64,000 nucleotides of DNA from Tidjanibacter sp. (GTDB lineage: Bacteria; Bacteroidota; Bacteroidia; Bacteroidales; Rikenellaceae): the NCBI GenBank assembly GCA_017466345.1, contig JAFTUI010000017.1, positions 90,735 to 154,734 of the forward strand, in the 5' to 3' direction. The notes below the pieces were generated by a model. The model was not told the DNA's origin. It was given only the letters and a program-made list of their open reading frames with translations, and made no database searches. Each line of letters opens with the position of its first letter. Position 1 is the first letter of the stretch. Below, in pieces: positions 7,838-63,976 of the stretch. The position numbers and the translations under genes are program-made.

Positions 7838-7901
7838 TTAAACTCCTATAAGCCCTATAAGCCTTAGGACTATTGACGTTAGGCGTTAGACGTTAAACGT
7901 C
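7838..7901 (-). repeat. heptamer/core/nonamer repeat, copy a (degenerate)
   Basis: Read on the minus strand: three divergent GTCTAAC-type heptamers, the core GTCAATAGTCCTAAGG, then CTTATAGGG nonamers. Members of the same family occur at least a dozen times in the window. Confidence 0.85.
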
Positions 7902-7925
7902 AGCCCAAAACATTAATGAATGAAG

Positions 7926-7958
7926 AGACCACCGCACACAATAAAGTGGTCTTTTTTT
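7926..7958 (+). terminator. terminator or attenuator upstream of rpoN
   Basis: AGACCAC pairs with GTGGTCT across a 13-nt loop, followed by seven T. It sits only 25 nt before the rpoN ATG, so it either ends upstream transcription or attenuates rpoN. Confidence 0.7.
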
Positions 7959-7982
7959 CACGTTAAAGTTATAGAATAAGTT

Positions 7983-9407
7983 ATGAGTTCATTTAGTCAA
8001 AAACAGGTATTGGGTCTGAGCCAGAAACTCTCGCCCCAGCAAATCCAGATGATTAAACTCCTCGAACTCCCCTCGGTGTTGCTCGAACAGCGCATCAAGC
8101 AGGAGATTGAGGAGAATCCCGTATTGGAGGAGAGTGTGAGGGAGGAGAATGAGAGTGGCGAGCAGCGCAAGGAGATTTCCGTTGAGGAGTATCTGCGAGA
8201 GGATGACACGCCAGCCTACAAGATGCGCACCAACAACTACTCCAAAGATGACCGACAGCCTACGGTCTACATCTCGGGCGGCAGGTCGTTGCAGGAGTTC
8301 TTGGAGGAGCAGTTGGGCTACAAGGACCTCTCGGTGCGCGACAAGGCTATCGCCAAATACCTCATTGGCAGTCTTGATGATGACGGGTATCTGCGCCGCG
8401 ACCTTGTGTCGGTGTCGGACGACATCGCTTTCAGCATAGGTCTTGACCTCTCGCCCGAGGAGTTGGAGCGAGTGTTGAGGGTTGTGCAAGAGTTGGAGCC
8501 TTCGGGTGTGGGTGCGCGGAATTTGCAGGAGTGTCTGCTGTTGCAGTTGCGCTCTATGGAGCCACTTGGTGAGGCTCAGCAGTTGGCAAAGCGCATCCTT
8601 ACGGACTATTTTGACGATTTCGCAAAGAAACACTACGACCGTCTGCTCTCCCGCTTGGGAGTCGGGCGCGAGGAGTTTGCAGAGGCTATTGAGGAGATAC
8701 GTCACCTCTCACCCAAGCCCGGCAACCTCTATGGCGAGGGCTCGGACGATGCGGCACCCTATGTTGTGCCCGACTTTATTCTTGACTATCACGAGGGCGA
8801 GTTTGACCTTAGGCTCAACTCCTACAATGTGCCCGACTTGAAGGTCAATCGCCGCTATATGGAGATGCTGCGCAACTCTATGGCGGGTGGCACCACTGCC
8901 GAACAGGACAAAGAGGCGGTGCAGTTCGTAAAGAGCAAGATAGACTCCGCAAAGTGGTTTATCTCCGCCATAAAACAGCGTCACGACACCCTCTTGGGCA
9001 CTATGACCGAGATTTTCAACTATCAAAGGGAGTATTTTATAGATGGCGACCCCAAGCGACTCCGACCTATGATTTTGAGGGATATTGCCGACCGTACAGG
9101 GCTGGATGTATCGACCATTTCGAGGGTTGTGAACAGTAAGTATGTCCAGACTCACTTTGGTATCATTCCGCTGAAAAGTCTCTTCTCGGAGGCTATGCAG
9201 ACCGATAGTGGCGAGGAGGTGTCGTCCTACGAGATTAAGCAAATCCTCTCGGACTGCATTGCCGAGGAGGATAAGCAGCACCCTCTGACCGATGAGGCTC
9301 TTATGAACATTCTCAACGATAAGGGCTACCATATCGCCCGCAGAACGGTGGCTAAGTATCGCGAGATGCTCAAAATCCCTGTTGCCCGCCTGCGTAGGCA
9401 GATATAA
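7983..9407 (+). CDS. rpoN: RNA polymerase sigma-54 factor
   Basis: 474 residues, full length. Region I is Gln/Leu rich (QVLGLSQKLSPQQIQMIKLLELP), followed by an acidic linker, the core-binding domain (about 110-300), the helix-turn-helix region, and near the C-terminus the RpoN box ARRTVAKYREMLKIP that reads the -24 element. Sigma-54 needs AAA+ enhancer-binding proteins; none is encoded in this window. The membrane-protein gene begins 12 nt after the stop and is probably cotranscribed. Confidence 0.97.
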   Translation: MSSFSQKQVLGLSQKLSPQQIQMIKLLELPSVLLEQRIKQEIEENPVLEESVREENESGEQRKEISVEEYLREDDTPAYKMRTNNYSKDDRQPTVYISGGRSLQEFLEEQLGYKDLSVRDKAIAKYLIGSLDDDGYLRRDLVSVSDDIAFSIGLDLSPEELERVLRVVQELEPSGVGARNLQECLLLQLRSMEPLGEAQQLAKRILTDYFDDFAKKHYDRLLSRLGVGREEFAEAIEEIRHLSPKPGNLYGEGSDDAAPYVVPDFILDYHEGEFDLRLNSYNVPDLKVNRRYMEMLRNSMAGGTTAEQDKEAVQFVKSKIDSAKWFISAIKQRHDTLLGTMTEIFNYQREYFIDGDPKRLRPMILRDIADRTGLDVSTISRVVNSKYVQTHFGIIPLKSLFSEAMQTDSGEEVSSYEIKQILSDCIAEEDKQHPLTDEALMNILNDKGYHIARRTVAKYREMLKIPVARLRRQI

Positions 9408-9419
9408 TAGCACCCTGCA

Positions 9420-10049
9420 ATGACCACCCACAATCAGTCCATACCCACCTTTTTGGCACGAATACTCTCGCTGCTGCTCCATCCGATGACGATGGTGCTG
9501 TGGATGTCGTTTGTGGCTCTCTTTGGACTCGTAGGAAGGCTCACTTACCCCTCTGCTGTAAGATGGTATGTTGTTGGTACGGTGGCTTTTATGACTATTT
9601 TTATCCCCTGCCTTTTTCTGTGGTTGCTAAGGGTATTCGTGGGCGCAAAGCGTGCGGATACAACGTCACGCCATACACGCCTTATGATGTTGGTGGCTGT
9701 GGCAGTGTGCTACACCTGCTGTGGGTGGGTGTTCGATAGTGTTGTGGTGCTCTACCTTGTGCGCAAGATGCTCTATACTGCTACTGCTGTGGTGGTGCTG
9801 CTTGCCATCTTTGAGTTTTTCTACCCTTTGAGCTACCACACAACAGCACTCGGTGCCCTCTTGGGAATGATGTGGATGTTGCTGTTGGTGGGTAATACAG
9901 CTCTGCTCACACCCTTTATTGTGGGTGTGGTTGCTGTGGGGTTGCTTGCCACCTCTCGCATACACCTTAAAGGCTACTCGTTGGGTAGGGTAGCGTGGGG
10001 CGCACTCTTGGGCTTTGCCCTCGCAGCAGTGATATTGGTAATCATATAG
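9420..10049 (+). CDS. integral membrane protein, possibly PAP2-like
   Basis: 209 residues with about six hydrophobic segments (near 25-50, 50-70, 88-112, 115-135, 140-165, 180-205). The position right after rpoN and the general hydrophobicity fit a PAP2-type phosphatase superfamily protein, but I cannot see the catalytic KxxxxxxRP or SGH motifs. If related, it is a non-catalytic version. The function is unknown. Confidence 0.7.
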   Translation: MTTHNQSIPTFLARILSLLLHPMTMVLWMSFVALFGLVGRLTYPSAVRWYVVGTVAFMTIFIPCLFLWLLRVFVGAKRADTTSRHTRLMMLVAVAVCYTCCGWVFDSVVVLYLVRKMLYTATAVVVLLAIFEFFYPLSYHTTALGALLGMMWMLLLVGNTALLTPFIVGVVAVGLLATSRIHLKGYSLGRVAWGALLGFALAAVILVII

Positions 10050-10078
10050 TATAACACAAGTCGTCCCCAGCCACACCG

Positions 10079-10252
10079 CCTCCCCTACGAAAGGGGAGGT
10101 TGGGAGGGGTGGTCGAAATTGCGCTCGGCGTCCTCGCTGAGCAGGGATGGTGCCCGAAGGGCGGGAGAGGTCTGTTAAAAAGCCTCCCCTACGAAAGGGG
10201 AGGTTTGGAGGGGTGGTCGAAATTGCGCTCGGCGTCCTCGCCGAGCAGGGAT
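10079..10252. repeat. two tandem copies of a 104-bp hairpin-rich repeat
   Basis: Copies begin at 10079 and 10183 with 70 bp nearly identical. Each carries CCTCCCCT-loop-AGGGGAGG, then GCTCGGCG-loop-CGCCGAGC, followed by GGGCGGGAGAGGTCTGTTAAAAAG between the copies. A third copy lies at 53809 and a variant at 60012. A mobile or recombinogenic intergenic element is likely; no gene is inside. Confidence 0.9.
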
Positions 10253-10339
10253 TTAGGGGGTGGGTAACACAGTGAAGTCCACAACCGTGATGGTAGTTAC
10301 TGACTTGCAAAGGCGATTGTCTGGTGGTATTCATACTCC

Positions 10340-10384
10340 GCATCCCTCCTTATTTTTGGCATTGCCAAAAATAAGGAGGGATGC
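10340..10384. terminator. perfect 22-bp inverted repeat with 1-nt centre
   Basis: Arms 10340-10361 and 10363-10384 are exactly complementary. It may terminate transcription in either direction through the AAAAATA/TATTTTT inner part, but no T-run follows, so a cruciform-forming element is equally possible. Confidence 0.55.
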
Positions 10385-10422
10385 CTCACGGCAACCCTCC
10401 TCCAATCAAACTTCTCTAACAC

Positions 10423-10629
10423 CTAATTCACTGCTTTGGCGAAACACTCGCTGAGCAACGTATCCAAAAAGAGCAGTTCGGGCTCTTCGCAAATGACGTG
10501 CTGCATCAGAAGTGCGTAATCTTCGCCATTGGAGCAGTTTTCCTTTTTTGAATAGTCAATCTCTCCCATAGGCAACTTGCGGTTAAATGTTGTGGTTTTT
10601 AGAAAATCTCTTTCACATACATAACGCAC
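10423..10629 (-). CDS. small hypothetical protein, doubtful
   Basis: A 68-residue frame with a GTG start lies 35 nt after the ECF sigma gene on the same strand. The product is soluble and acidic with three Cys, shows no recognised domain, and starts weakly. It could be a real accessory gene of the sigma factor, or a remnant; a stop lies nine codons upstream of the GTG in the same frame. Confidence 0.25.
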   Translation of the reverse strand: MRYVCERDFLKTTTFNRKLPMGEIDYSKKENCSNGEDYALLMQHVICEEPELLFLDTLLSECFAKAVN

Positions 10630-10664
10630 CGCCTTGGGGTTTATTGTGAGAAACTACTTAAAAT

Positions 10665-11255
10665 TTATTCGAGAGCGATATTTTTTTCTTTTATCATCTT
10701 CCTGAGGTTGATAAGGGCATAGCGCATACGCCCAAGGGCGGTGTTGATACCCACCTCGGTCTGCTCGGCAATCTCCTTGAACGATAGACCGCCATAGTAG
10801 CGTAGCCTTACGACCTCCTGCTGCTCTTCGGGCAGTTCGGCAACCAAATTCCTGAGGTCTGCCTCTATCTGCTCGCCCACCATACGGTCCTCTATGGAGC
10901 CTTCTGTGAGTCGTTGTGTGGCGAGGATGTCGTAGCCCGCGCTACTCTCGTTTACACTCGGGTTGTGTTTCTCGGAGCGGAAGTGGTCAATGACCTGATT
11001 GTGGGCTATGCGCATAACCCACGAGAGGAACTTGCCACTCTCCTTGTAGCGTCCGCTGTCGATGACGCGCACTACCTTGATGAATGTCTCTTGGAAAATA
11101 TCATCGGCAAGCTCGGCGTCCTTGACCATCATACGGATATAGTCATAGACGCGCACACGATGACGCTCTATTAGTTGGGAGATAGCCTCTTTGTTGCCTG
11201 CAAGGTAAGCGGAGAGCAACTCGTTGTCGCTCCTACCTTGTGATTGTTGTAACAT
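10665..11255 (-). CDS. ECF-type RNA polymerase sigma factor
   Basis: 196 residues. Region 2 (ADDIFQETFIKVVRVI, then FLSWVMRIAHNQVIDHFR) is the core-binding and -10-reading helix set. Region 4 (LPEEQQEVVRLRYYGGLSFKEIAEQTEVGINTALGRMRYAL) is the helix-turn-helix that contacts the -33/-35 element. No anti-sigma gene lies adjacent, so it may belong to the ECF group without a cognate membrane anti-sigma that is common in Bacteroidota. The target regulon is not visible. Confidence 0.92.
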   Translation of the reverse strand: MLQQSQGRSDNELLSAYLAGNKEAISQLIERHRVRVYDYIRMMVKDAELADDIFQETFIKVVRVIDSGRYKESGKFLSWVMRIAHNQVIDHFRSEKHNPSVNESSAGYDILATQRLTEGSIEDRMVGEQIEADLRNLVAELPEEQQEVVRLRYYGGLSFKEIAEQTEVGINTALGRMRYALINLRKMIKEKNIALE

Positions 11256-11460
11256 ACTCTTTCTTCAAATGTTGGTTTATAAAGAGTAGATGTTTTCGAT
11301 AGGCAAAAAGTGTTTAGTTGTACAAAAAGTCTAATTGAAACTGCGTGCAAGATAGAGATTTTTCCCCTAATTTCCAAATCAAACACGAGTTTTTACCGAT
11401 TTTCTCCACCTCGACACGCAGTTCAACTCCATAGAGAACAAAACTTGTGCCAAATTGGAG
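11256..11460. other. upstream region of the ECF sigma gene
   Basis: An AT-rich intergenic region. I see no perfect TAnnTTTG for the sigma gene and no coding sequence; CAACATTTG 12 nt upstream of its ATG on the minus strand is the nearest match. Confidence 0.4.
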
Positions 11461-11532
11461 GTCTAATGTCTAACGTCTAACGTCAATAGGCCTAAGGCTT
11501 ATGGGAGATATGGGAGATATGAGAGATATGAG
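11461..11532 (+). repeat. heptamer/core/nonamer repeat, copy b
   Basis: Three GTCTAAC-type heptamers, the core (here GTCAATAGGCCTAAGG), then 9-bp units of the ATATGGGAG/ATATGAGAG type. Confidence 0.9.
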
Positions 11533-11629
11533 AAAATTTTCAATTTTCGCAAATGCGAGTAAGCGAGGGCAGAGGGCACTTGTGCACTATGCCGAGCGGG
11601 AGCATTTTAGACAAAACAAAGTTTTGTCA
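11533..11629 (+). repeat. CTTG-hairpin element, copy A
   Basis: A 90-bp dispersed element: CGCA-AA-TGCG, then an imperfect stem (GGCA 11568-11571 with TGCC 11590-11593) capped by GCA-CTTG-TGC, then GAGCGGGAGCATTTTA and a terminal hairpin GACAAAAC-AAA-GTTTTGTC (11610-11628). Copies B (41882) and C (59915) preserve the fold with different stem bases. Confidence 0.85.
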
Positions 11630-11672
11630 ATTCTCAATTCTCAATCCTCAATTCTCAATTCTCAATTCTCAA
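11630..11672. repeat. heptamer array (AATTCTC)n
   Basis: About five tandem copies of AATTCTC run up to, and just into, the 3' end of the downstream half-transporter gene. Confidence 0.85.
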
Positions 11673-12190
11673 TACAGGACTATTCCTGCCACTGCCGAGA
11701 GGATGATGAGCAGAATGGGGTTGACCTTCCTGACGGAGGCAACAAAGCACCCCGCAAAAATCACCCAACTCTTCCAATCTATGAACGTACTCTCGCCAAA
11801 GAGCATCAGTGCCGAGGAGAGTATCAGACCTATCATCATAGGCTGCATACCGCTCATTGCACCCTTGAATTGGCGATTGTCGCGAAGGCGGAAGTAGAAC
11901 TTTGTGGCGAGCATCATCAGCGTCAGCGAGGGCAGGCAGACAGCAACGGTTGCCAGCAGCGAGCCCCACACATTGCCCGTAACGGTGTAGCCCACATAGG
12001 TGGCACAGTTGATGGCGATAGGTCCGGGGGTCATCTGTGATATGGCTGCCACATCGGCAAGTTCGGCTGCTGTGAGCCAGCCATTTTGCACGACCACCTC
12101 GTTATAGATGAGCGAAATCATAGCGTAGCCTCCTCCGAAGCCGAAGAAGCCTATTTTCAGATACGATAGGAAAAGGTTTAAGTATATCAT
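11669..12190 (-). CDS. chromate transporter family protein, half-size (second of pair)
   Basis: 173 residues, one CHR domain. FFGFGGGYAMISLI near the N-terminus and LADVAAISQMTPGPIAINCATYVGY are the family signatures; about five to six membrane spans follow. The start overlaps the stop of the partner gene by 4 bp (ATGA), so the two half-size proteins are translationally coupled and probably form a heterodimer of opposite membrane topology. Chromate export is known for characterised members, but the natural anion of gut homologues is uncertain. Confidence 0.9.
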   Translation of the reverse strand: MIYLNLFLSYLKIGFFGFGGGYAMISLIYNEVVVQNGWLTAAELADVAAISQMTPGPIAINCATYVGYTVTGNVWGSLLATVAVCLPSLTLMMLATKFYFRLRDNRQFKGAMSGMQPMMIGLILSSALMLFGESTFIDWKSWVIFAGCFVASVRKVNPILLIILSAVAGIVLY

Positions 12191-12804: not shown

Positions 12805-12876
12805 CTCATAACTCCCATAACTCCCATAACTCTCATAAGCCTTAGGACTATTGACGTTAGACGTTAGACGTTAGAC
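12805..12876 (-). repeat. heptamer/core/nonamer repeat, copy c
   Basis: On the minus strand: three GTCTAAC heptamers, the core GTCAATAGTCCTAAGG, then TTATGAGAG/TTATGGGAG nonamers. It lies downstream of rsmE. Confidence 0.9.
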
Positions 12877-12887
12877 AAAAATCCGTA

Positions 12888-13592: not shown

Positions 13593-13596
13593 AGCG

Positions 13597-17288: not shown

Positions 17289-17391
17289 ATGTCTAACATC
17301 CTAAGGCTTATAGGGCTTATAGGGCATATAGGGCTTATGGGAGTTATGGGAGGACTGAGAGATATGGGAGCCCCATAAGCCTCTCCTAAGC
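17289..17391 (+). repeat. heptamer/core/nonamer repeat, copy d (reduced)
   Basis: One GTCTAAC and a shortened core (ATCCTAAGG), followed by about eight 9-bp units (GGGCTTATA, GGGCATATA, GGGAGTTAT). Confidence 0.85.
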
Positions 17392-20462: not shown

Positions 20463-20549
20463 GGTCTAACGTCTAACGTCTAACGTCTAACGTCTAACGT
20501 CAATAGTCCTAAGGCTTATGGGGCTTATAGGGCTTATAGGGCTTATAGT
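20463..20549 (+). repeat. heptamer/core/nonamer repeat, copy e
   Basis: Five perfect GTCTAAC heptamers, core GTCAATAGTCCTAAGG, then GGGCTTATA nonamers that run directly into a truncated coding fragment. Confidence 0.92.
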
Positions 20550-23819: not shown

Positions 23820-25622
23820 ATGACGGGAAGTAATACGGAGCGTATGGGACAAGTGGAGCGATTGCTCCTGTGGCTCAACGTGCAGACCAGACGCATCAGT
23901 GGCAGACAACTGACCTTTGTGCTGGCGATTGTTGTCGGCTTGGTGTCGGGAGGCGTGACTTGCATCTTCGAGTGGTTGCTGGGGCTCATTAAGGACGGAC
24001 TGACGAGCTGGTTTCCAAAGGAGAATGTGGGTTGGCTCTACCTCTTGTACCCTATGGTGGGTATCATCTTGGCGAGTCTTTTTGTGAGGTTTATCGTGAA
24101 GGACGACATCTCGGAGGGTGTGACGAAGGTTTTGAAGGCTATGAGTACCTCCTCCTCGCAGATTAAACCCCACAACTGCTACTCTTCGGTGGTGGGTGGT
24201 GCGCTGACCATCGGCTTTGGTGGTTCGGTAGGTCCCGAGGCTCCTATTGTCCTGACGGGTGCAGCCATTGGCTCCAATATAGGCAGGCTTATGAGGCTCA
24301 ACTACCGCAATATGACGCTTATGCTGGCGTGCGGTGTTGCGGCAGCACTCTCGGCAATCTTCAAGGCTCCCATCACGGGTGTGATATTCGTTATGGAGAT
24401 ACTGCTGCTCGATATGAGTATGACTGCCATTATCCCGCTCATTATATCCTCTGTTACGGCTGTGACGCTTACCTTCTTCGTAAGAGGTTTTGAGCCTATG
24501 CTCTCGGCAAGTACGGTTGGCGACCTCTCGTTCTCGCATATCCCCATCTACACACTCCTTGCGGTGCTCTGTGGTCTTATGTGCTACTACTTTATGAGGG
24601 TAAACTTCCGCGTGAAGGGAGTCATCGACCGCCTCGGCAAGCAATGGAAAAAGTGGATTGTGGGTGGTTTGGCTCTGGGTGTGATGATTATGCTCTTCCC
24701 CCCGCTCTATGGCGAGGGCTATGGCATCTTCCACCACTTTATGAAGGGCGATGTGCAGGCAGTCTTCGACAACTCGGGCTTCTACGATTTTAGGGAGAAC
24801 CATTGGGTGGTCTTGGGATACCTGCTCGCCATTATGTTCGTGAAGGCTATCGCTATGGCTGTCACGAACGCTTCGGGAGGTGTGGGCGGTACTTTCGCAC
24901 CCTCACTCTTTGTGGGTGCCTTTATGGGTGCTATTGTGGCATACGTTGGCAACACCTTCTTCGATGCCGACCTCTCGATTGCCGCCTTCTCGTTAGTTGG
25001 TATGGCGGGCTTGATGTCGGGCGTTATGAAGGCTCCGCTTACGGCAGTCTTCCTCATTGCCGAGATTTCGAGTGCCTACCAACTCTTTGTTCCTCTGATG
25101 CTTGTGTCGTGCGTGTCGTATGTCATCAACCGCTACTTGGAGCCCGACAGCATCTATACCAAAACACTCCGACAAAAGGGACAACTCCTCACACACGACA
25201 AGGACCAAGCCGTTAGTGTTGTGCTCTCCATTCGCTCTCTAATAGAGACCAACATCCTCAGCATAGGCGAGTACGACACGCTGGGAGATATGGTCGTAAG
25301 GGTTATTCCGCATACTACGCGAAACATCTTCCCCGTTCTTAACTCGGAGGGCAAATTGCTGGGCGTGGTAGAGTTTGATAAGTTGCGCAAGGATATGTTT
25401 GACCAAACGAAGTACCCCAACTCTGTGCAGCGTTATATGATTACCCCTCCCGATGTTATTATTGACAATGAGTCGGCATCGAGCGTTTTGGAGAAGTTTG
25501 AGAATACGGGCGCGTGGAACCTGCCCGTAACCGATAAGGAGGGACGCTATGTGGGTTTTGTGAGTAAGTCGCGCATCCTTACCGCCTACCGCGAGAAACT
25601 CAAAGAGATGACACAAGAGTAA
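23820..25622 (+). CDS. ClC family chloride channel/antiporter with CBS domains
   Basis: 600 residues from ATG 23820. About ten membrane helices carry the ion-path motif GFGGSVGPEAPIVL, retaining the gating Glu of CLC antiporters, and GMAGLMSGVMKAPLTAVFLIAEIS. Two cytoplasmic CBS domains follow (about 465-595), likely binding adenine nucleotides. The transport mode (Cl-/H+ exchange or fluoride) cannot be decided from sequence here. The stop runs straight into the AATTGAG array. Confidence 0.93.
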   Translation: MTGSNTERMGQVERLLLWLNVQTRRISGRQLTFVLAIVVGLVSGGVTCIFEWLLGLIKDGLTSWFPKENVGWLYLLYPMVGIILASLFVRFIVKDDISEGVTKVLKAMSTSSSQIKPHNCYSSVVGGALTIGFGGSVGPEAPIVLTGAAIGSNIGRLMRLNYRNMTLMLACGVAAALSAIFKAPITGVIFVMEILLLDMSMTAIIPLIISSVTAVTLTFFVRGFEPMLSASTVGDLSFSHIPIYTLLAVLCGLMCYYFMRVNFRVKGVIDRLGKQWKKWIVGGLALGVMIMLFPPLYGEGYGIFHHFMKGDVQAVFDNSGFYDFRENHWVVLGYLLAIMFVKAIAMAVTNASGGVGGTFAPSLFVGAFMGAIVAYVGNTFFDADLSIAAFSLVGMAGLMSGVMKAPLTAVFLIAEISSAYQLFVPLMLVSCVSYVINRYLEPDSIYTKTLRQKGQLLTHDKDQAVSVVLSIRSLIETNILSIGEYDTLGDMVVRVIPHTTRNIFPVLNSEGKLLGVVEFDKLRKDMFDQTKYPNSVQRYMITPPDVIIDNESASSVLEKFENTGAWNLPVTDKEGRYVGFVSKSRILTAYREKLKEMTQE

Positions 25623-25682
25623 ATTGAGAATTGAGAATTGAGAATTGAGAATTGATAATTGAGAATTGAGAATTGAGAATTG
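25621..25682. repeat. heptamer array (AATTGAG)n
   Basis: About eight tandem copies of AATTGAG, one interrupted (AATTGATAATTGAG), fill the whole gap between the ClC stop and the next ATG. Confidence 0.95.
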
Positions 25683-26045
25683 ATGCAAGGAAAAAACGTC
25701 ATACAGGAGAAAAGTAAGCGGTTTGCAATACGCATAGTGCGTTTTTCGCAGTATTTACAGAATGATAAAAAGGAGTATGTTTTATCTAAGCAGATATTGC
25801 GTTGCGGCACAAGTATAGGTGCAAATATTTTTGAGAGTAGAAATGCACAAAGTAAAGATGATTTTATACACAAGCTTTCAATTGCATTAAAAGAAGCAGA
25901 TGAAACAAACTATTGGCTTGAAGTTTTACTTGGGGCTGATATTATTAATAGCAGCGAATACGATTCATTATATACTGATTTGGACGAATTAATATCGTTA
26001 TTGGTGTCAATCATTAAGAGCTTGAAAAATAACAAAGAGAAGTAG
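25683..26045 (+). CDS. four helix bundle protein (S23/IVS-type)
   Basis: 120 residues from ATG 25683. The pattern FAIRIVRFSQYL, ILRCGTSIGANIFESRNAQSKDDFIHKLSIALKEADETNYWLEVL matches the small four-helix proteins first found in 23S rRNA intervening sequences; free-standing versions are widespread and of unknown function, sometimes near mobile DNA. Base composition is clearly more AT rich than neighbours, with TTA and AAA codons common, suggesting transfer. 7-mer arrays flank it on both sides. Confidence 0.9.
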   Translation: MQGKNVIQEKSKRFAIRIVRFSQYLQNDKKEYVLSKQILRCGTSIGANIFESRNAQSKDDFIHKLSIALKEADETNYWLEVLLGADIINSSEYDSLYTDLDELISLLVSIIKSLKNNKEK

Positions 26046-26052
26046 AGATTAT

Positions 26053-26087
26053 AATTCTCAATTCTCAATTCTCAACTCTCAATTCAA
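26053..26087. repeat. heptamer array (AATTCTC)n at a start codon
   Basis: About five units of CAATTCT/CAACTCT end immediately before the ATG of the GT4 gene. It is the reverse complement of the array on the other side of the four-helix gene. Confidence 0.92.
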
Positions 26088-38185: not shown

Positions 38186-38198
38186 TTTATAGTCTGAT

Positions 38199-38250
38199 GT
38201 CTAACGTCTAACGTCAATAGTCCTAAGGCTAATAGGGCATATAGGGCATA
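38199..38250 (+). repeat. heptamer/core/nonamer repeat, copy f
   Basis: Two GTCTAAC heptamers, core GTCAATAGTCCTAAGG, then AATAGGGCATATAGGGCATA. Confidence 0.9.
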
Positions 38251-42711: not shown

Positions 42712-43386
42712 ATGAAAAAAGATCCAACTGTAAGCCTCGCACGACTGCTCGATGGTATGGCTATCTTCGCAAGTCTGCTGTTACTCCTCTCGCTCTCGAT
42801 AGATATCATCGAGCGCAAAACCTACATTCTCTCGGCAGGCGTTGAGGAGTTACAACTCTTCGTTTGTATGATATTTATTATCGACTATGTGGTGCAGACG
42901 ATGATGGCGCGTAATCCCAACCGCTACTTCCGCCGCAACATCCTGCTGCTACTCGTTTCAATACCCTATTTGAATATGTTGGAGTGGGGTGGGGCGGAAC
43001 TACCCAAGGGGCTCTACATAGTGCTCAAATGTCTGCCTATGGTACGCGGTGCAGTGGGAGTCTATGGGCTTATAAGGCATATCACGCCTTCGAGAGTGAG
43101 TGCCATAATGTGGAGCTACATTGCACTCATAGTACTCGTTACATACCTCTCTTCCCTCGTCTTCTACTCCTACGAGGAGGTCGTAAATCGCTCGGTAGAT
43201 AACTTTGGTACTGCCCTCTGGTGGGCGGGACTCAACGTCACGACAGTCGGCGCACCGCTTTTTGCCGTTACGCCCGTTGGAAAGGTACTTACGGTACTTC
43301 TCCCGGGGCTCGGAATGATACTCTTCCCCCTGATGACGGTCTATGTTACCCACCTTGTGCAGAGAAGTCTAACGTCTAACGTCTAA
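42712..43386 (+). CDS. potassium-channel-like ion transport protein
   Basis: 224 residues with about six membrane segments and a pore-like loop before the last helix: FGTALWWAGLNVTTVGAPLFAVTP. The filter position reads TTVGAP rather than TVGYG/TVGFG, and the S4-like helix has few Arg, so potassium selectivity and voltage sensing are doubtful. The last six residues (SLTSNV) and stop are encoded by the GTCTAAC heptamer array, implying that the repeat has replaced the original C-terminus. ATG 42712 was chosen because the upstream frame crosses the tRNA-Met gene. Confidence 0.8.
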   Translation: MKKDPTVSLARLLDGMAIFASLLLLLSLSIDIIERKTYILSAGVEELQLFVCMIFIIDYVVQTMMARNPNRYFRRNILLLLVSIPYLNMLEWGGAELPKGLYIVLKCLPMVRGAVGVYGLIRHITPSRVSAIMWSYIALIVLVTYLSSLVFYSYEEVVNRSVDNFGTALWWAGLNVTTVGAPLFAVTPVGKVLTVLLPGLGMILFPLMTVYVTHLVQRSLTSNV

Positions 43387-43475
43387 CGTCAATAGTCCTA
43401 AGGCTTATAGGGCATATAGGGCATATAGGAGTAACAGGAGTGACAGGGTTTTCCTGTCCTTCCTGTTCTTCCTGC
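43369..43475 (+). repeat. heptamer/core/nonamer repeat with snapback arm, copy g
   Basis: Three GTCTAAC heptamers (overlapping the preceding CDS), the core, GGGCATATA nonamers, then AGGAGTAAC/AGGAGTGAC units facing TCCTTCCTG/TTCTTCCTG units across GGGTTTTCC; the two sides are partly complementary. Confidence 0.9.
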
Positions 43476-43477
43476 CC

Positions 43478-43546
43478 TTAAAAGCATCGGGCTCGGCAAT
43501 TTTGCCGAGCCCGCTCTCTGAATTTTGGTGCAAAAAGCATCCGTTA
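43478..43546 (-). terminator. terminator hairpin of tdk
   Basis: On the minus strand CTTTTTGCACCAAAATTCAG (the 5' arm of the giant-palindrome family) leads into a perfect stem GGGCTCGGC-AAAATT-GCCGAGCCC, then ATGCTTTT. It seems a shortened member of the family. Confidence 0.7.
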
Positions 43547-44238: not shown

Positions 44239-44287
44239 CCTATCCTCTCTGCTCGCCACCCATAAAACCCTAAAAATCAAAAAATTT

Positions 44288-44329
44288 TGCATTTTGAATT
44301 TTGCATTTTGAATTTTATTTGTATCTTTG
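44288..44329 (+). promoter_or_regulatory. rpsA promoter built on a TTTTGAATTTTGCA repeat
   Basis: TTG (44301-44303), 18 bp, TATCTTTG (44322-44329). The -33 element lies inside tandem TTTTGCA/TTTTGAA units, and similar units precede the rnz promoter. Confidence 0.7.
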
Positions 44330-46354: not shown

Positions 46355-46525
46355 GTCTAATGTCTAACGTCTAACGTCAATAGTCCTAAGAGTTCCAGGG
46401 ATAACAGGGATAACAGGGGTTGCAGGGGGAATTCTTCCTTGTTATCCTTGTTATCCTTGTTATCCTTGTTATCCTTGTAACCCCTGCATCCCCTGCATCC
46501 CCTGCATCCCCTGCATCCCTCCCCT
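46355..46525 (+). repeat. heptamer/core repeat with long snapback nonamers, copy i
   Basis: Three GTCTAAC-type heptamers and core GTCAATAGTCCTAAG, then CAGGGATAA x2, GGGGTTGCAGGGGGAATTC, then TTGTTATCC x4 and CCTGCATCC x4. The left and right nonamers are reverse complements, so the array folds back on itself. Confidence 0.9.
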
Positions 46526-46567: not shown

Positions 46568-46581
46568 CTCAATTTTGAATT

Positions 46582-46611
46582 TTGCATTTTGAATTTTGCA
46601 TTGTATTTTTG
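46582..46611 (+). promoter_or_regulatory. rnz promoter, leaderless type
   Basis: TTTG, 19 bp, TATTTTTG (46604-46611), then TACT and ATG. The -33 element is part of the TTTTGAATTTTGCA repeat. Confidence 0.7.
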
Positions 46612-48213: not shown

Positions 48214-48215
48214 GG

Positions 48216-48432
48216 TCTAACGTCTAACGTCTAACGTCAATAGTCCTAAGGCTTATAGGAGTGACAGGAGTGACAGGAGTAACAGGAGTAACAGGGCTTT
48301 CCTGTTTTTCCTATTCCTCCTGTCCTTCCTGTCCTTCCTGTTCTTCCTGTTCTTCCTGTTCTTCCTGTTCTTCCTGTTCTTCCTGTTCTTCCTGTTCTTC
48401 CTGTTCTTCCTGTTCTTCCTGTCCTTCCTGTC
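48216..48432 (+). repeat. heptamer/core repeat with expanded TTCTTCCTG array, copy j
   Basis: Three GTCTAAC heptamers, the core, AGGAGTGAC/AGGAGTAAC units x4, GGGCTTTCC, then TCCTTCCTG variants and nine perfect TTCTTCCTG units (48341-48421). It is the longest pure array in the window and so the likeliest to vary between strains. Confidence 0.95.
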
Positions 48433-53444: not shown

Positions 53445-53610
53445 GGGTGGGGAGTACTACCCTCACAAAAGCATCGTTCCGATGCCTCGCCTTCTTGTTT
53501 GGCACAAAATTTCCTCCGCTCTCTGCGTTTTTGCGTTGCAAAGAAATCCCAGCACAAAAGCGTCACTCTGACGCCGCCTAAAATACGCTCGCTTATATGC
53601 GTTTTTTTGG
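53445..53610. repeat. right-arm fragments of the giant-palindrome family
   Basis: Two orphan 3' arms: CTTCTTGTTTGGCACAAAAT...CTCTGCGTTTTTGCG and GCCTAAAATACGCTCGCTTATATGCG. Small inverted repeats (GCATCG/CGATGC, GGCGTC-type) interrupt them. No gene. Confidence 0.7.
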
Positions 53611-53757
53611 TCTAATGTCTAACGTCTAACGTCAATAGTCCTAAGAGTTCCAGGGATTCCAGGGATAACAGGGGTTGCAGGGGGAATTCTTCCTTGTTAT
53701 CCTTGTTATCCTTGTTATCCTTGTAACCCTTGTAACCCCTGTAACCCCTGCCTCCCT
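53611..53757 (+). repeat. heptamer/core repeat with snapback nonamers, copy k
   Basis: Three heptamers and core GTCAATAGTCCTAAG, then CAGGGATTC/CAGGGATAA, the same GGGGTTGCAGGGGGAATTC centre as copy i, TTGTTATCC x3 and TTGTAACCC-type units. Same centre as copy i but different unit numbers. Confidence 0.9.
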
Positions 53758-56975: not shown

Positions 56976-57093
56976 TGTCTAACGTCTAACGTCTAACGTC
57001 TAACGTCTAACGTCTAACGTCTAACGTCAATAGTCCTAAGGCTTATGGGAGATATGGGAGATATGGGAGATATGGGAGATATGGGAGGACTCT
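56976..57093 (+). repeat. heptamer/core/nonamer repeat, copy l (seven heptamers)
   Basis: Seven perfect GTCTAAC units, the most in the window, then core GTCAATAGTCCTAAGG and five GGGAGATAT units. It lies upstream of plsC and divergent fabD. Confidence 0.95.
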
Positions 57094-59866: not shown

Positions 59867-59898
59867 AAACACGAAAAGTGTTTCTAAAATAAATCATC
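59852..59898. terminator. stop-codon-spanning hairpin at the parE end
   Basis: GATTTATTTTAGAAACAC (59855-59872, includes the TAG stop) pairs perfectly with 59878-59895 over a GAAAA loop, and one more mismatch-tolerant triplet extends it. The 3' arm is an inverted copy of the gene end. No separate T-run. Confidence 0.8.
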
Positions 59899-59914
59899 TA
59901 CAATTGAGAATTGA

Positions 59915-59993
59915 GGCAAATGCGAGTAAGCGAGGGCAGAGGGCACTTGTGCACTATGCCGAGCGGGAGCATTTTAGAGCAGCCGAAGGCTGG
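59915..59993 (+). repeat. CTTG-hairpin element, copy C
   Basis: Same apical GCA-CTTG-TGC as copy A, but the terminal hairpin is replaced by CAGCC-GAA-GGCTG (59980-59992) followed by the same TCAATT. Confidence 0.85.
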
Positions 59994-60011
59994 TCAATTG
60001 AAAATTAATAC

Positions 60012-60058
60012 TCCCCTAAGGCAAGGGGAGCTGTCGCAACGCGACTGAGGGGTCTGTT
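60012..60058. repeat. variant of the GGGGAGG repeat
   Basis: CTCCCCT-AAGGC-AAGGGGAG, then GTCGC-AAC-GCGAC, GAGGGGTCTGTTAA. Same layout as the 104-bp repeat with different second stem. Confidence 0.75.
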
Positions 60059-60090
60059 AATTTTGAATTTTGCATTTTGAATTTTGCATT
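60059..60090. repeat. TTTTGAATTTTGCA array upstream of parC
   Basis: Alternating TTTTGAA and TTTTGCA heptamers, the same units as at rpsA and rnz. TAATTTTG (60058-60065) overlaps it and might act as a -7 element. Confidence 0.8.
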
Positions 60091-60102
60091 CCAAAAAAGA
60101 GT

Positions 60103-63051
60103 ATGGAAGAGAATAAAAATATAGAGAACGAGATTGAGGCGATGGATGCTTCGGAGGTGGTTGAGGCTGCTTCTGCCGAGGAGGTAGAGGAGGTTGTGGC
60201 TGCCAAGGAGGTCGATTCGCGCAAACTCTCGGACAAGTATGTGAAACTGATGGGCGAGGGCGGCAAGGCTCGCACAAAGCTGACGGGACTCTATCGCGAT
60301 TGGTTCCTCGACTACGCTTCGTATGTTATCTTGGAGCGTGCGGTGCCCTACATTGACGATGGTCTCAAACCCGTCCAGAGGCGTATCCTGCACTCTATGC
60401 GTAGGATGTATGACGGTAGCCGTATTAAAGTGGCAAACATTGTGGGACACACTATGCAGTTCCACCCCCACGGCGATGCTTCGATTGGCGATGCGCTGGT
60501 GCAGCTCGGCCAGAAGAACCTCTTGATAGATACTCAGGGTAACTGGGGTAACATCCTCACGGGCGATGGTGCTGCGGCTCCTCGTTATATCGAGGCAAGG
60601 CTCTCGAAGTTCGCTTTGGAGGTGGTTTTCAGCCCCAAGATTACCGAGTGGATGCTCTCCTACGATGGTAGGAATAAAGAGCCCGTGACGCTGCCCGTTA
60701 AGTTCCCTCTGCTGCTGGCTCAGGGTGTTGAGGGTATTGCTGTGGGCTTGGCATCGAAGATTTTGCCCCACAACTTCAACGAACTCTTGGATGGCTGTGT
60801 GGCTCATCTGAGGGGCGAAGATTTCGAGCTCTACCCCGACTTCCCCACGGGCGGTCTTATGGACGTGAACCGCTATAACGATGGTCTGAGGGGTGGCTCG
60901 GTAAAAATCCGTGCCCGCATCAACAAGATAGACAAACGCACCATCGCCATCACCGAAATTCCCTTTACGACCACTTCGGAGAGTGTCAAGGAGTCTATTG
61001 TGAAGGCTTCCGAGGCGGGTAAGATAAAAATCCGTAGCGTGGATGACAATACCGCCTCTACGGTGGAATTGTTGGTGCACGTTGCCGCAGGCGAGAGTAT
61101 CGACAAGACCATAGACGCTCTGTATGCCTTTACGGATTGCGAGGTCTCCATCTCACCCAACTCGTGCGTAATCAAGGATGGTAAGCCCTGCTTCCTCGGC
61201 GTGAAGGATATTTTGCGCCACAATGCCGAGCACACCCGCGACCTGCTGGGGCAGGAGTTGCAGGTAAGACTCAGCGAACTTGCCGAGGAGTGGCATATGG
61301 CATCGTTGGAGAGGATTTTCATCCAGAACAAGATATATCAAGTACTCGAAAAGTGCAAGTCGCCAGAGGAAGCATACGAGGCTGTCGATAAGGCTTTGGA
61401 GCCCTTCAAGAAACTGCTCAAAAGGGAGGTTACGAGGGACGATGTCGTGAGGCTTACCGAACTGAAATTCATCCGCATCACTCGCTACGACCTCGACAAG
61501 GCGGATAACCATATCAAGGCTATCGAGAAAGAGACCAAGCAGGTTAAGCACGATTTGGCACACCTTACGGAGTTTGCCATCAACTACTTCGAGGACATCA
61601 AAGCCCGCTATGGTAAAGGACGCGATAGGAAGACCGAAATACGCTCCTTCGACAGCATCGCTCAGGCAAAGGTGGCTGTCGTGAACTCGAAACTCTATGT
61701 CGATAGGGAGGGTGGCTTCTTTGGTATTGGTGCCCAGATGAAGCAGGCGGAGTATGTCTGCGACTGCTCCGATTTGGACGATGTGATTGTCTTCTTGGAG
61801 GATGGTCGCTATGTCATCCGCAAGGTTGTGGATAAGGACTTCTATGCCCCCGGTATTGTATATATAGGTGTCTTCCGCAGGGGCGATGAGAGGACCATCT
61901 ACAATGTTCTCTACCGCGATGGCGACAAGGGCGCAAATATGATGAAGCGTTGCGCCATCAGTGCCATCACTCGCGACAAGGAGTATAACATCACTAAGGG
62001 AAACCCCAAGAGCCGCATACTCTATATGAGCGTGAACCCCAATGGCGAGGCAGAGATACTGAAAATCATCTTCCGCCAGAGGGCAAAACTCAAAAAGGCT
62101 ATTGTGGATTTGGATTTCAGCCAGCTGGCCATCAAAGGTCGCGCCTCGCAGGGTAACATCTTCTCGCGTAACCCCATACACAAGATTCTCTTGAAGGCTA
62201 AGGGTGCCTCGACACTCGCCGGACAGCAGATTTGGTATGACGAGGATATTAAACGCCTCAACGATAGCGGTCACGGTAGGCTGCTGGGCGAGTTCAAGGG
62301 GGACGACAAGATTATTGTCTTCACTGCCAAAGACCAATACTACACCACGGGCTACGATGTGGGACACCACTTCCCCGAGGATACCGTGAGGGTGGAGAAA
62401 TACGACTCCTCGAAGATTTATAGCGTGGCTTATTGGGACGAGGGGGCACAGTTCTACTACCTGAAACGCTTTATGGCAGAGGATACCGATAGGATGCTCT
62501 CGTTTGTGGACGAGGAGAACGCCAAGTCGAAGAGCGTGGGTATCTCGGACGAGCCACAACCCGCTTTGGAGGTTATCTATGGCGGTGCTCACGCCACCAA
62601 ACCTGCCGATGTTATCAATGTGGCAGAGTTTATTGGTGTTAAAGGCTATAAGGCTAAGGGTAAGAGGGTTACAACCTATATTGTGGAGAAATTGAGGTTT
62701 ATACCTCAGCACTTTGCACCCACTCCCGAACCCGAAGAGCCTGCCGAGGAGCAAATGACCGATGCGGAGGTGGCGGAACAGCCAACGGATAATGTGGCAA
62801 CCATCGCCGCCGAGCCTGTGAAGAGTGCCGAGCCTAAGGTCGCTGAGGAGCCTACGGTGGCGACTGTTGAGGAGCCCCAGAAGGTTGCCGAGCCTGAACT
62901 TGTGGTGTCTGCCGAGCCCGTTGAGCCCCAAGAAGAGGTTGTGACACCTGCGGTGGAGGATGAAGATGATATAGAGATGGAGATTATAATCCCCAAAGAT
63001 GAGGATGAGGTCGAATCCCGCCCCGACTCACAGCAACTCAACCTCTTTTAG
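60103..63051 (+). CDS. parC: DNA topoisomerase IV subunit A
   Basis: 982 residues from ATG 60103. An acidic N-terminal extension (about 1-40) precedes the winged-helix core: VGHTMQFHPHGDASIGDALVQ is the quinolone-resistance-type region, and AAAPRYIEARLSK carries the catalytic Tyr. The C-terminal beta-pinwheel ends about residue 880; then a repetitive tail rich in Glu, Pro and Val (about 885-980). It pairs with parE immediately upstream. The stop lies in a perfect hairpin. Confidence 0.94.
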   Translation: MEENKNIENEIEAMDASEVVEAASAEEVEEVVAAKEVDSRKLSDKYVKLMGEGGKARTKLTGLYRDWFLDYASYVILERAVPYIDDGLKPVQRRILHSMRRMYDGSRIKVANIVGHTMQFHPHGDASIGDALVQLGQKNLLIDTQGNWGNILTGDGAAAPRYIEARLSKFALEVVFSPKITEWMLSYDGRNKEPVTLPVKFPLLLAQGVEGIAVGLASKILPHNFNELLDGCVAHLRGEDFELYPDFPTGGLMDVNRYNDGLRGGSVKIRARINKIDKRTIAITEIPFTTTSESVKESIVKASEAGKIKIRSVDDNTASTVELLVHVAAGESIDKTIDALYAFTDCEVSISPNSCVIKDGKPCFLGVKDILRHNAEHTRDLLGQELQVRLSELAEEWHMASLERIFIQNKIYQVLEKCKSPEEAYEAVDKALEPFKKLLKREVTRDDVVRLTELKFIRITRYDLDKADNHIKAIEKETKQVKHDLAHLTEFAINYFEDIKARYGKGRDRKTEIRSFDSIAQAKVAVVNSKLYVDREGGFFGIGAQMKQAEYVCDCSDLDDVIVFLEDGRYVIRKVVDKDFYAPGIVYIGVFRRGDERTIYNVLYRDGDKGANMMKRCAISAITRDKEYNITKGNPKSRILYMSVNPNGEAEILKIIFRQRAKLKKAIVDLDFSQLAIKGRASQGNIFSRNPIHKILLKAKGASTLAGQQIWYDEDIKRLNDSGHGRLLGEFKGDDKIIVFTAKDQYYTTGYDVGHHFPEDTVRVEKYDSSKIYSVAYWDEGAQFYYLKRFMAEDTDRMLSFVDEENAKSKSVGISDEPQPALEVIYGGAHATKPADVINVAEFIGVKGYKAKGKRVTTYIVEKLRFIPQHFAPTPEPEEPAEEQMTDAEVAEQPTDNVATIAAEPVKSAEPKVAEEPTVATVEEPQKVAEPELVVSAEPVEPQEEVVTPAVEDEDDIEMEIIIPKDEDEVESRPDSQQLNLF

Positions 63052-63070
63052 GTCGCCGACCTAAAAGAGG
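63044..63070. terminator. stop-codon-spanning hairpin at the parC end
   Basis: CTCTTTTAGGTC (including the TAG stop) and GACCTAAAAGAG form a perfect 12-bp stem with a GCC loop. The heptamer array starts one base later. Confidence 0.8.
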
Positions 63071-63184
63071 GTCTAACGTCTAACGTCTAACGTCTAACGT
63101 CTAACGTCAATAGTCCTAAGTCTTATAGGGCTTATAAGGCTTATAGGGCTTATAGGGCTTATAGGGCTTATAAGGCATATAGGA
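63071..63184 (+). repeat. heptamer/core/nonamer repeat, copy m
   Basis: Five GTCTAAC heptamers, core GTCAATAGTCCTAAG, then about seven GGGCTTATA-type nonamers. Confidence 0.95.
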
Positions 63185-63187
63185 AAA

Positions 63188-63223
63188 ACTCTCAACTCTC
63201 AATTCTCAATTCTCAATTCTCAA
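63188..63223. repeat. heptamer array (AATTCTC)n at the aroK start codon
   Basis: About five units of CAACTCT/CAATTCT end one base before the aroK ATG, exactly as at the GT4 gene (26053-26087). Confidence 0.92.
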
Positions 63224-63745
63224 ATGGTTATCTTCCTTGTAGGTTTTATGGGGTGCGGTAAGAGCACCGTTGCGCGAGGGCTGGCGGAAATCGCCGGTTG
63301 GGACTTCGTGGACCTCGATAGGGTGGTGTGCCAAAGGGCAGGTGCCGAGGATGTGGCGGAAATTTTTGCTCGTTCGGGCGAGGAGGAGTTCCGTAGGTTG
63401 GAGAGGGAGGTTATAGAGAGCCTTGCCTTTGCCGAGAACGCTGTGGTGGCTACGGGAGGCGGTGCGCCTTGCGTGGGCGATAATATGGAAAGATTGATGG
63501 CTTTGGGCACTACGGTCTATCTGAAAATGTCGCCCCTTGCACTGAGGGATAGATTGCTGCACGTCAGGGTTGTACGCCCCAAAATTGTGGGCAAGAACCC
63601 CGAAGAGTTGCTCGATTATGTAACCTCGCTGCTTGCCGAAAGGGAGCCCTACTACTCGCAAGCAAGAGTGGTGGTCGATTGTGACGGTATTCCAAGCAGG
63701 GTTGTCATCTCGCGACTACGCTACCTTGTGGGGCGCAGAGGATAA
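63224..63745 (+). CDS. aroK: shikimate kinase
   Basis: 173 residues. P-loop FLVGFMGCGKSTVARGLA; DLDRVV holds the shikimate-binding Asp; FRRLEREVIESL and VVATGGGAPC match the substrate site; lid Arg in LLHVRVVRPKIVG. It phosphorylates shikimate in aromatic amino acid synthesis. Other aro genes are not nearby. Its translation start lies directly behind a heptamer array. Confidence 0.95.
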   Translation: MVIFLVGFMGCGKSTVARGLAEIAGWDFVDLDRVVCQRAGAEDVAEIFARSGEEEFRRLEREVIESLAFAENAVVATGGGAPCVGDNMERLMALGTTVYLKMSPLALRDRLLHVRVVRPKIVGKNPEELLDYVTSLLAEREPYYSQARVVVDCDGIPSRVVISRLRYLVGRRG

Positions 63746-63779
63746 AGGGAGAATTTTGCGAAGTTCTTGCGCTGTGTTT

Positions 63780-63809
63780 TTGGTTATTTGAAATTTTTTA
63801 ATACTTTTG
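63780..63809 (+). promoter_or_regulatory. promoter of the CAT-anticodon tRNA
   Basis: TTTTTG, 19 bp, TACTTTTG (63802-63809), 18 nt before the tRNA. Confidence 0.75.
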
Positions 63810-63827
63810 TGGGCTGAAAAGCAAGAT

Positions 63828-63901
63828 GGACCCATAGCTCAGTTGGTCAGAGCAGCGGACTCATAATCCGAAGGTCGTGGGATCATGCCCCTCTGGGTCC
63901 A
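63828..63901 (+). tRNA. tRNA with CAT anticodon (Ile2 or Met)
   Basis: Acceptor GGACCCA/TGGGTCC, anticodon stem GCGGA/TCCG with loop CTCATAA, discriminator A, no encoded CCA. C4-G69 and C5-G68 in the acceptor are features used by TilS to recognise tRNA-Ile2, favouring Ile2 over Met. The T-loop is ATCATGC instead of the usual TTCRANY, with T54 and A58 exchanged, and one T-stem pair is T-T. Confidence 0.88.
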
Positions 63902-63907
63902 CAAGAA

Positions 63908-63943
63908 AAGGCGGTAGCAAAATTTTTGCTAACGCCTTTTTTT
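63908..63943 (+). terminator. terminator of the CAT tRNA
   Basis: GGCG-TAGCAAAA pairs with TTTTTGCTA-CGCC (one unpaired base each side), then seven T. Confidence 0.85.
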
Positions 63944-63944
63944 G

Positions 63945-63976
63945 ACTAACGTCTAACCTCTTATAGGGCATATAGA
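63945..63976 (+). repeat. degenerate heptamer/nonamer repeat, copy n
   Basis: GACTAAC, GTCTAAC, CTCTTATAGGGCATATAG: reduced form without the core, at the window edge. Confidence 0.7.

What the first reader, a model, noticed from the sequence alone, without database searches (positions are those of the whole stretch)
7838..63976. Modular intergenic repeat family: variable GTCTAAC heptamers + invariant core + nonamer arrays
At least twelve copies share a fixed order: 2-7 tandem GTCTAAC heptamers, the core GTCAATAGTCCTAAG, then 9-bp tandem units whose sequence differs between copies. Heptamer number differs by copy (two at 38199, three at 43369 and 48216, five at 20463 and 63071, seven at 56976). 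Both orientations occur (minus at 7838 and 12805). Order conservation with unit-number change suggests a defined element rather than random low complexity, and a contingency or structural role.
Basis: partly seen in the sequence, partly recalled or inferred. Interest (0 to 1): 0.7.

Follow-up and report, generated by a model that had tools for sequence, protein, structure and literature searches.

The report
Dispersed seven-and-nine-letter intergenic repeats
A gut bacterium's gaps between genes hold dozens of copies of a non-coding repeat built from stacked 7- and 9-letter units in a fixed order; it looks more like a spreading genomic passenger than a gene switch, and how it is made is unknown.

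Summary
The window holds 10 exact cores and one with a mismatch, each after 3-7 GTCTAAC-type heptamers and before 9-bp arrays; two more copies lack a full core. The genome has 88 exact cores. None was found in 60 relatives, but the same order (GTC-type heptamers, a GACCTAAG-type hinge, nonamers) recurs in four congeners with other units. The "core" is a degenerate heptamer plus the hinge, about as conserved as the heptamers.

Of 130 sampled intergenic arrays, 70 have period 7, 53 period 9, none 8. Copies start at T-tracts (56 of 85; background 5.6%), read mostly along the inferred leading strand (31 of 39), are commoner between convergent than divergent genes (26 against 5), and sit beside mostly housekeeping genes. 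Composites alike over 200-400 bp recur at unrelated sites, with halves exchanged near the arrays. Orthologous gaps in congeners are often nearly empty or hold other arrays.

Best reading: a dispersed non-coding composite repeat, spreading between intergenic sites and varying by slippage and recombination. A contingency role is not supported. An RNA-hairpin role is possible but weakly supported. Intergenic heptamers and small dispersed repeats are known kinds; this ordered 7-to-9 composite is a new variant. The mover is unidentified.

The parts
7832..7905 (-). copy 1: four heptamers, three of them degenerate (7878-7905), core 7863-7877, nonamers about 7832-7862
11461..11530 (+). copy 2: three heptamers, core with one mismatch 11482-11496, TATGGGAGA nonamers; a (TCAATTC)n heptamer array lies further on at 11627-11673
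12807..12876 (-). copy 3: three heptamers (12856-12876), core 12841-12855, nonamers 12807-12838
17291..17370 (+). variant without a full core: GTCTAAC, ATCCTAAG, then GGCTTATAG and TTATGGGAG nonamers
20464..20548 (+). copy 4: five heptamers, core 20499-20513, nonamers
38192..38250 (+). copy 5: two exact and one degenerate heptamer, core 38213-38227, nonamers
43367..43479 (+). copy 6: three heptamers (an ORF ending at 43386 takes its stop codon from the last of them), core 43388-43402, two opposed nonamer arrays
46355..46519 (+). copy 7: three heptamers, core 46376-46390, long two-armed nonamer array
48215..48431 (+). copy 8: three heptamers, core 48236-48250, AGGAGTAAC array then 14.8 copies of TTCCTGTTC (opposed arms)
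53610..53750 (+). copy 9: three heptamers, core 53631-53645, two-armed nonamers of the same type as copy 7
56977..57087 (+). copy 10: seven heptamers, core 57026-57040, TATGGGAGA nonamers; missing at the orthologous gap of G005 and G019
63071..63223 (+). copy 11: five heptamers, core 63106-63120, nonamers to 63183, then (TCTCAAT)n heptamers up to the start codon of the shikimate kinase gene
63944..63976 (+). variant without core: GACTAAC GTCTAAC then CTTATAGGGCATATAG

Best explanation
It is a dispersed, non-coding composite repeat of the genus. A typical copy reads: T-tract, a few GTC-type heptamers, a hinge (GTCCTAAG here, GACCTAAG in congeners), nonamers (often two opposed arrays), then often CAATTCT-type heptamers. 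Shown: copy number, order, T-tract boundary and orientation bias in this genome, similar composites at unrelated sites, and absence from or replacement at orthologous sites. Inferred: copies were seeded by insertion of whole composites at T-tracts, probably in single-stranded lagging-strand template, which would give the orientation bias. Unit numbers then drift by slippage, and recombination across the arrays shuffles left and right modules. Copies survive where harmless (3' ends, gaps outside promoters). No copy need have a function of its own. The agent that moves them is not identified.
For: 88 exact cores genome-wide; 86 distinct by context, two lying in stretches duplicated between contigs. 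Among the 40 longest aligned pairs, composites are alike over 205-404 nt at 78-96% identity; some share only the right half (60/62: 96%, 15 nt left of the core, 192 right), others mainly the left (61/65: 95%, 164 left, 29 right). The aroK gap is 11-23 bp (stop codon included) in seven congeners, carries only hairpin plus TCAATTC heptamers in G022, and other arrays elsewhere. T-tract at the left boundary in 56 of 85 against 5.6% of intergenic positions; 50 of 75 distinct flanks. Leading-strand orientation 31 of 39, p=0.0003; same orientation in 50 of 69 neighbouring pairs, p=5e-5. Convergent gaps 26, divergent 5. Mostly housekeeping neighbours. Intergenic arrays of period 7 or 9 in 123 of 130 (control).
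Against: No mobilising enzyme found: Y1 transposase in 1 of 24 genus genomes and not this one; reverse transcriptase in 4 of 24, not tracking the heptamers. No target-site duplication could be defined. No second genome of the species was available, so neither movement nor unit-number change was seen. T-tract boundary weaker in congeners: 9 of 29. 8 of 39 copies run against the inferred leading strand, and gene direction was not removed as a covariate. One-sided folding and G.T excess suggest some RNA- or ssDNA-level constraint that a purely passive repeat does not predict. The heptamer array at the 43387 site is shared with G014 but not with several others, which needs coincidence, loss or site preference.
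Confidence: 0.6

Rival explanations
1. The element is an RNA-level structure: transcribed in the core orientation, its opposed nonamer arms form a hairpin that ends or protects transcripts at 3' ends and between convergent genes.
For: Plus-strand fold stronger in 74 of 87; mean z -2.75 against -2.05 for the minus strand and -1.56 for 60 intergenic controls without 7- or 9-bp arrays. In 61 elements with at least 14 paired positions the arm mismatches include G.T 90 and A.C 29, with 67 and 56 expected from composition. Left neighbour reads into the element in 58 of 82.
Against: Among codirectional gaps only 26 with against 17 opposite. [quoted passage not shown] 72 of 87 copies fall in three related clusters, so mismatch counts are not independent. 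No Rfam match other than 4 tRNAs in the window.
Confidence: 0.2
2. A DNA-level site for chromosome organisation or replication, which would explain the orientation bias.
For: Orientation along the inferred leading strand 31 of 39; clustering of orientation along contigs.
Against: The exact core is absent from 60 relatives and the hinge differs between congeners and was found in few of them; spacing is irregular and 8 of 39 copies face the other way.
Confidence: 0.08
3. Contingency (phase-variation) repeats whose unit number switches neighbouring genes.
For: Heptamer number varies between copies, 0-7.
Against: Mostly housekeeping neighbours, copies scarce between divergent genes and 85 of 87 outside gene calls. 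Variation between loci is not variation at a locus.
Confidence: 0.04
4. Purely local slippage creating similar arrays independently, without dispersal.
For: Tandem units vary in number and are fairly homogeneous within arrays.
Against: A shared 15-mer in 88 places and composites alike over hundreds of bases at unrelated loci.
Confidence: 0.05

Closest known systems
TAACTGA heptamer direct repeats (MacGregor 2015, PMC4679880; abstract, outline and section 10 read)
   Same: Tandem intergenic heptamers, 169 sets in one genome, also in five Bacteroidetes, mixed there with other heptamers; some close relatives have shorter gaps without repeats. The same unit, in another rotation, occurs in this window at 699-728.
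   Different: Different unit here; that paper's main case lies just upstream of start codons; the parts read describe no hinge, nonamers or fixed 7-to-9 order.
G-rich heptamer repeats of Xanthomonas and Nostoc (Rehm 2015, PMC4692102; passages read)
   Same: Over-represented intergenic heptamers varying in length and sequence between close relatives; polymerase slippage cited as a possible origin.
   Different: G-quadruplex-type units; no composite with nonamers in the passages read.
Four-heptamer elements of Geobacter metallireducens (PMC2700814; passages read)
   Same: A family of 49 elements with four tandem heptamers.
   Different: Other unit, inside genes as well as between them, read there as regulatory RNA; no nonamers in the passages read.
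Small dispersed repeats of Nostoc, often inside heptamer tandem repeats (Elhai 2008; recalled, paper not held; two searches found only papers with its terms or title phrase)
   Same: Short dispersed sequence embedded in tandem heptamers, thought mobile.
   Different: Cyanobacterial sequences of 21-27 nt; no nonamer zone recalled.
REP/REPIN and CGTC-tagged palindromes (PMC3116915, PMC3733652; passages read)
   Same: Short, extragenic, dispersed; CGTC families lack a known transposase and are reported from Bacteroidetes too.
   Different: Those are palindromes (CGTC type: 8-9 bp stems, 4-5 nt loops) or pairs of them, not tandem arrays.

Membership tests
TAACTGA-type intergenic heptamer repeats | tandem direct heptamers, intergenic | tested here: met
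TAACTGA-type intergenic heptamer repeats | the unit TAACTGA | tested here: not met
   unit is GTCTAAC; a TAACTGA rotation occurs separately at 699-728
TAACTGA-type intergenic heptamer repeats | placement mostly just upstream of start codons | tested here: not met
   a start faces the left end in 24 of 82 (first quartile 16.5 nt, median 97.5) and the right side in 33 of 77 (median 263 nt)
REP / REPIN | short palindrome as the repeated unit | tested here: inconclusive
   one example folds to a 7-bp stem with a 7-nt loop across the hinge, and core plus 24 nt averages -8.9 kcal/mol; not the 8-9 bp stem and 4-5 nt loop of CGTC REPs
REP / REPIN | RAYT (Y1) transposase in the genome | tested here: not met
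   PF01797 not found in this 95.6% complete genome; CGTC REPs lack one too
Classical insertion sequence or MITE | terminal inverted repeats and target-site duplication | tested here: inconclusive
   inverted heptamers at both ends seen at L055 and within L182 only; outer inverted repeats never on both sides; no duplication definable
Contingency simple sequence repeats | unit number varies within a population at one locus | not testable with these tools
   no second genome or reads of the species
Contingency simple sequence repeats | association with surface or restriction genes | tested here: not met
   19 window neighbours scanned; not tested genome-wide
Known RNA families (Rfam 15) | covariance-model match | tested here: not met
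   only 4 tRNAs in the window at gathering threshold

The most novel reading that the evidence does not exclude
An unidentified replication-coupled process, acting at single-stranded T-tracts, builds and spreads arrays of exactly 7- and 9-nt units joined by a 7-to-9 hinge. It is shared by several species of the genus while each uses its own units.
Probability: 0.18. Interest if true: 0.8.

Novelty: new variant of a known kind. Interest (0 to 1): 0.5.

Why it matters
Intergenic heptamer repeats have been noticed in several phyla; slippage has been suggested, but I know of no settled origin. Here array-rich species of one genus show two favoured periods, 7 and 9 with no 8 in the stretches sampled, in one ordered composite that recurs between genes and, in this genome, starts at T-tracts and is biased to one replication strand. 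That turns a vague question (why heptamers?) into testable ones: what sets the period, what moves the composite, and on which strand. It also warns that such arrays probably break assemblies and should not be read as gene switches by default.

Tried and rejected
But in 395 Bacteroidia only 2 besides this genome carry GTCTAACx3, against 6 that carry the backward-read control (my count from the rows). So the unit is not special outside the genus.

The 7/9 rule as universal: not so. In the 80 loci, picked for heptamers, period 7 has 128 arrays, 9 has 18, 14 has 16, 6 has 9 and 8 has 6.

Transposase or reverse transcriptase as the mover: distribution does not fit, though many congener genomes are incomplete. 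The one RT here resembles PADLOC defence RT models.

Viral origin: no viral contig has the heptamer-core exactly. Outer inverted repeats (ACAAAACCCACTCGC): on the left in 15 of 87, on the right in 2, never both, so they belong to a neighbouring repeat. Six-frame stop arrays: true of GTCTAAC, not of the six other heptamers tested. A first G.T count looked stronger until corrected for composition. My hinge pattern was one base out of phase for this genome's usual nonamer, so its count of 1 for G000 is not meaningful. Literature searches for heptamer or 7-plus-9 composites gave no description of such a composite in what I saw (listings, and passages of the papers cited). For the genus name only a listing of 10 of 36 papers was seen. 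The library holds open-licence papers only.
Full report
Observation. The window holds 10 exact copies of GTCAATAGTCCTAAG and one with a single mismatch, each preceded by 3-7 GTCTAAC-type heptamers (degenerate ones counted) and followed by 9-bp tandem units. Chance is excluded: 15 near matches against 1.23 expected and 31 heptamer pairs against 0.24. Two further window copies lack a full core (17291, 63944). The genome (1.82 Mb, 30 contigs, 95.6% complete) holds 88 exact cores. In the loci I fetched there are 89 matches to the core or its T-to-G variant, 87 of them distinct by context; the other two lie in stretches identical between contigs for 2 kb or more, perhaps assembly redundancy. The context counts below use these 87 (86 exact, 1 variant).

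Anatomy. The core is not separate from the heptamers: it is one more degenerate heptamer (GTCAATA) plus GTCCTAAG. In 455 kb (the window plus 20 stretches chosen on copy-bearing contigs, so not a random sample) cores directly after a heptamer numbered 38 exact, 5 with one mismatch, 2 with two, 2 with three and 1 with four. 196 of 252 heptamers are exact GTCTAAC, units with more than two mismatches not being counted. Per base the two are similar. Heptamers before the core: 3 in 36 copies, 2 in 25, 4 in 10, 5 in 7, 1 in 6, and 0, 6 and 7 once each. After the core 52 of 87 go on with GCTTAT; others with AGTT (9), GCATAT (7) or TCTTAT (6). Many carry a second, opposed nonamer array and then CAATTCT-type heptamers.

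Two periods. Tandem Repeats Finder on the 455 kb gave 130 intergenic arrays of at least 2.8 copies: 70 of period 7, 53 of period 9, 3 of 11, 2 of 14, 2 of 18, none of 8; 11 arrays overlapped called genes, none of period 8. Of the 73 period-7 arrays, genic ones included, 28 are GTCTAAC. Three Markov resamples of the same 455 kb gave 0, 1 and 0 arrays. Congener G005, in 90 kb, gave 18 of period 7, 27 of 9 and none of 8 among 50; G022 5 and 2 of 10 in 99 kb; G020 3 and 4 of 7 in 24 kb; G019 and G021 one array each (periods 9 and 6) in 64 and 41 kb. So the rule is shared by array-rich species, but not every species has many arrays. It is not universal: in the 80 loci of other taxa and congeners, selected for heptamers, 6 arrays have period 8 beside 128 of 7 and 18 of 9.

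Relatives. The exact core is in 0 of 60 relatives, 23 of them congeners. GTCTAACGTCTAACGTC occurs in 8 of 24 genus genomes including this one. A hinge-plus-nonamer pattern occurs in 5 of 24: G020 21, G017 18, G005 17, G023 6, and 1 here (out of phase, see tried), with no backward controls. I read 29 distinct congener hinge loci from the 30 loci fetched of 63 matches: 28 have at least one and 23 at least two heptamers directly before the hinge, by a lax G[TA][CT] rule. The units differ by species (GTCTAAA/GTCTAAG in G023, GTCTACC in some G020 copies). Named GTDB records carrying GTCTAACx3 include several Tidjanibacter MAGs and a Rikenellaceae MAG.

Orthologous sites. Before aroK (63224) the gap between aligned coding ends is 11-23 bp in seven congeners (G003, G004, G006, G008, G011, G012, G019), hairpin plus TCAATTC heptamers in G022, nonamers plus CTCAACT heptamers in G023, and an inverted heptamer array in G017. 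At 57025, G005 and G019 lack the stretch, while G020 has GTCTACC heptamers, GACCTAAG and nonamers there. At 43387, G014 has GTCTAAC and GTCGACC heptamers at the same gene end while G005, G009, G013, G018, G020, G021 and G022 do not. Part's printout was cut, so I rest on the rows shown. AroK is only 41-78% identical between these species (best matches), so no exact insertion point or target duplication can be read.

Dispersal and mosaicism. All-against-all comparison joins 72 of 87 copies into three clusters (60, 10 and 2) at 90 nt and 82% or more. Single linkage over repetitive sequence inflates the largest. The 40 longest pairs align over 205-404 nt at 78-96% identity; some share only the right half, others mainly the left, with the break at or near the heptamer-core-nonamer tract. 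I read this as copying of whole composites with exchange of halves.

Boundary, orientation and context. A run of at least four T ends within 3 nt of the first heptamer in 56 of 85 copies (two rows dropped because the left flank at a contig end was too short) against 5.6% of intergenic positions; 50 of 75 with distinct flanks. In congener hinge loci 9 of 29, and in the arrays 19 of 77. Neighbouring copies share orientation in 50 of 69 pairs (p=5e-5 against coin flips). With leading strand inferred from fourfold-site skews, 31 of 39 copies read along it (p=0.0003), or 21 of 26 in regions with a clear skew (p=0.0025) (raw skews). I did not remove the part explained by gene direction. Gene arrangement around the 87: same direction as the element 26, convergent 26, opposite direction 17, divergent 5, contig edge 11, inside a very short ORF. 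Among intergenic gaps of at least 60 bp in the sampled regions, convergent gaps hold a core more often than divergent ones (10 of 39 against 3 of 41, Fisher p=0.035); convergent against codirectional (p=0.17) and codirectional against divergent (p=0.20) are not significant. Genes were called with my own scorer, not a standard gene finder.

Neighbours. 19 of 22 window neighbours were scanned. Names include asparagine-tRNA ligase, sigma-54, an ECF-type sigma factor, a chromate-transporter-like protein, RsmE, QueA, an MsbA-like exporter, thymidine kinase, ribosomal protein S1, RNase Z, a glycogen-synthase-like protein, topoisomerase I, a Dcp-like peptidase, FabD, an acyltransferase, a type II topoisomerase A subunit and shikimate kinase; several are below the curated cut-off, one has no family and one only a weak channel match. 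This does not look like a contingency set.

Structure. Core plus 120 nt folds better as the plus strand in 74 of 87; mean z is -2.75 plus, -2.05 minus and -1.56 in 60 intergenic controls without 7- or 9-bp arrays; 65 of 87 have the lower z on the plus strand. In the best inverted pairing of the 61 elements with at least 14 paired positions, mismatches include G.T 90 and A.C 29 where composition predicts 67 and 56. This favours plus-strand pairing, but copies are related and ssDNA would also tolerate G.T. The window has no Rfam match except 4 tRNAs.

Mechanism and standing. Dispersal of composites is well supported; array drift by slippage is inferred from the varying unit numbers; insertion at single-stranded T-tracts is an inference from boundary and orientation; the mover is unknown. 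Known kinds that it works like: intergenic heptamer repeats and small dispersed repeats. I do not file it as a REP or REPIN: no Y1 transposase was found and the palindrome test is inconclusive. Searches for a described 7-plus-9 composite found none, in an open-licence library only.

Noticed in passing
window 699-728: (ACTGATA)4.3 is a rotation of the TAACTGA heptamer described in Beggiatoaceae, between convergent genes.
   Followed up: partly
window 4173-4198, 11627-11673, 25622-25683, 26053-26085, 44283-44316, 46571-46602, 60059-60090, 63190-63223: Second heptamer families (CAATTCT, CAATTTT, GAATTTT types) often abut start or stop codons. Of 15 CAATTCT arrays in 455 kb, the 5 within 40 nt upstream of a start are all sense and the 6 within 40 nt after a stop all antisense.
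   Followed up: partly
L042, L045, L053, L067 (left of the heptamers): A larger dispersed hairpin repeat (right end CACTCGC) ends 9-11 nt before the heptamers in 14 of 87 copies.
   Followed up: partly
L203 679-2268 (-): A 529-aa reverse transcriptase resembling PADLOC RT-Protease_XI / RT-TIR_XII defence models.
   Followed up: partly
G000 contig ends: 14 of 88 cores lie within 1 kb of a contig end, where about 3 are expected; the repeats probably break the assembly.
   Followed up: partly
L041/L065 and L061/L066: Stretches of 2-4 kb identical between contigs: assembly redundancy or recent duplication.
   Followed up: no
G020 aroK upstream (L323): A different heptamer-like array (units such as TGTAAAC and TGACAAC) fills the same gap.
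   Followed up: no
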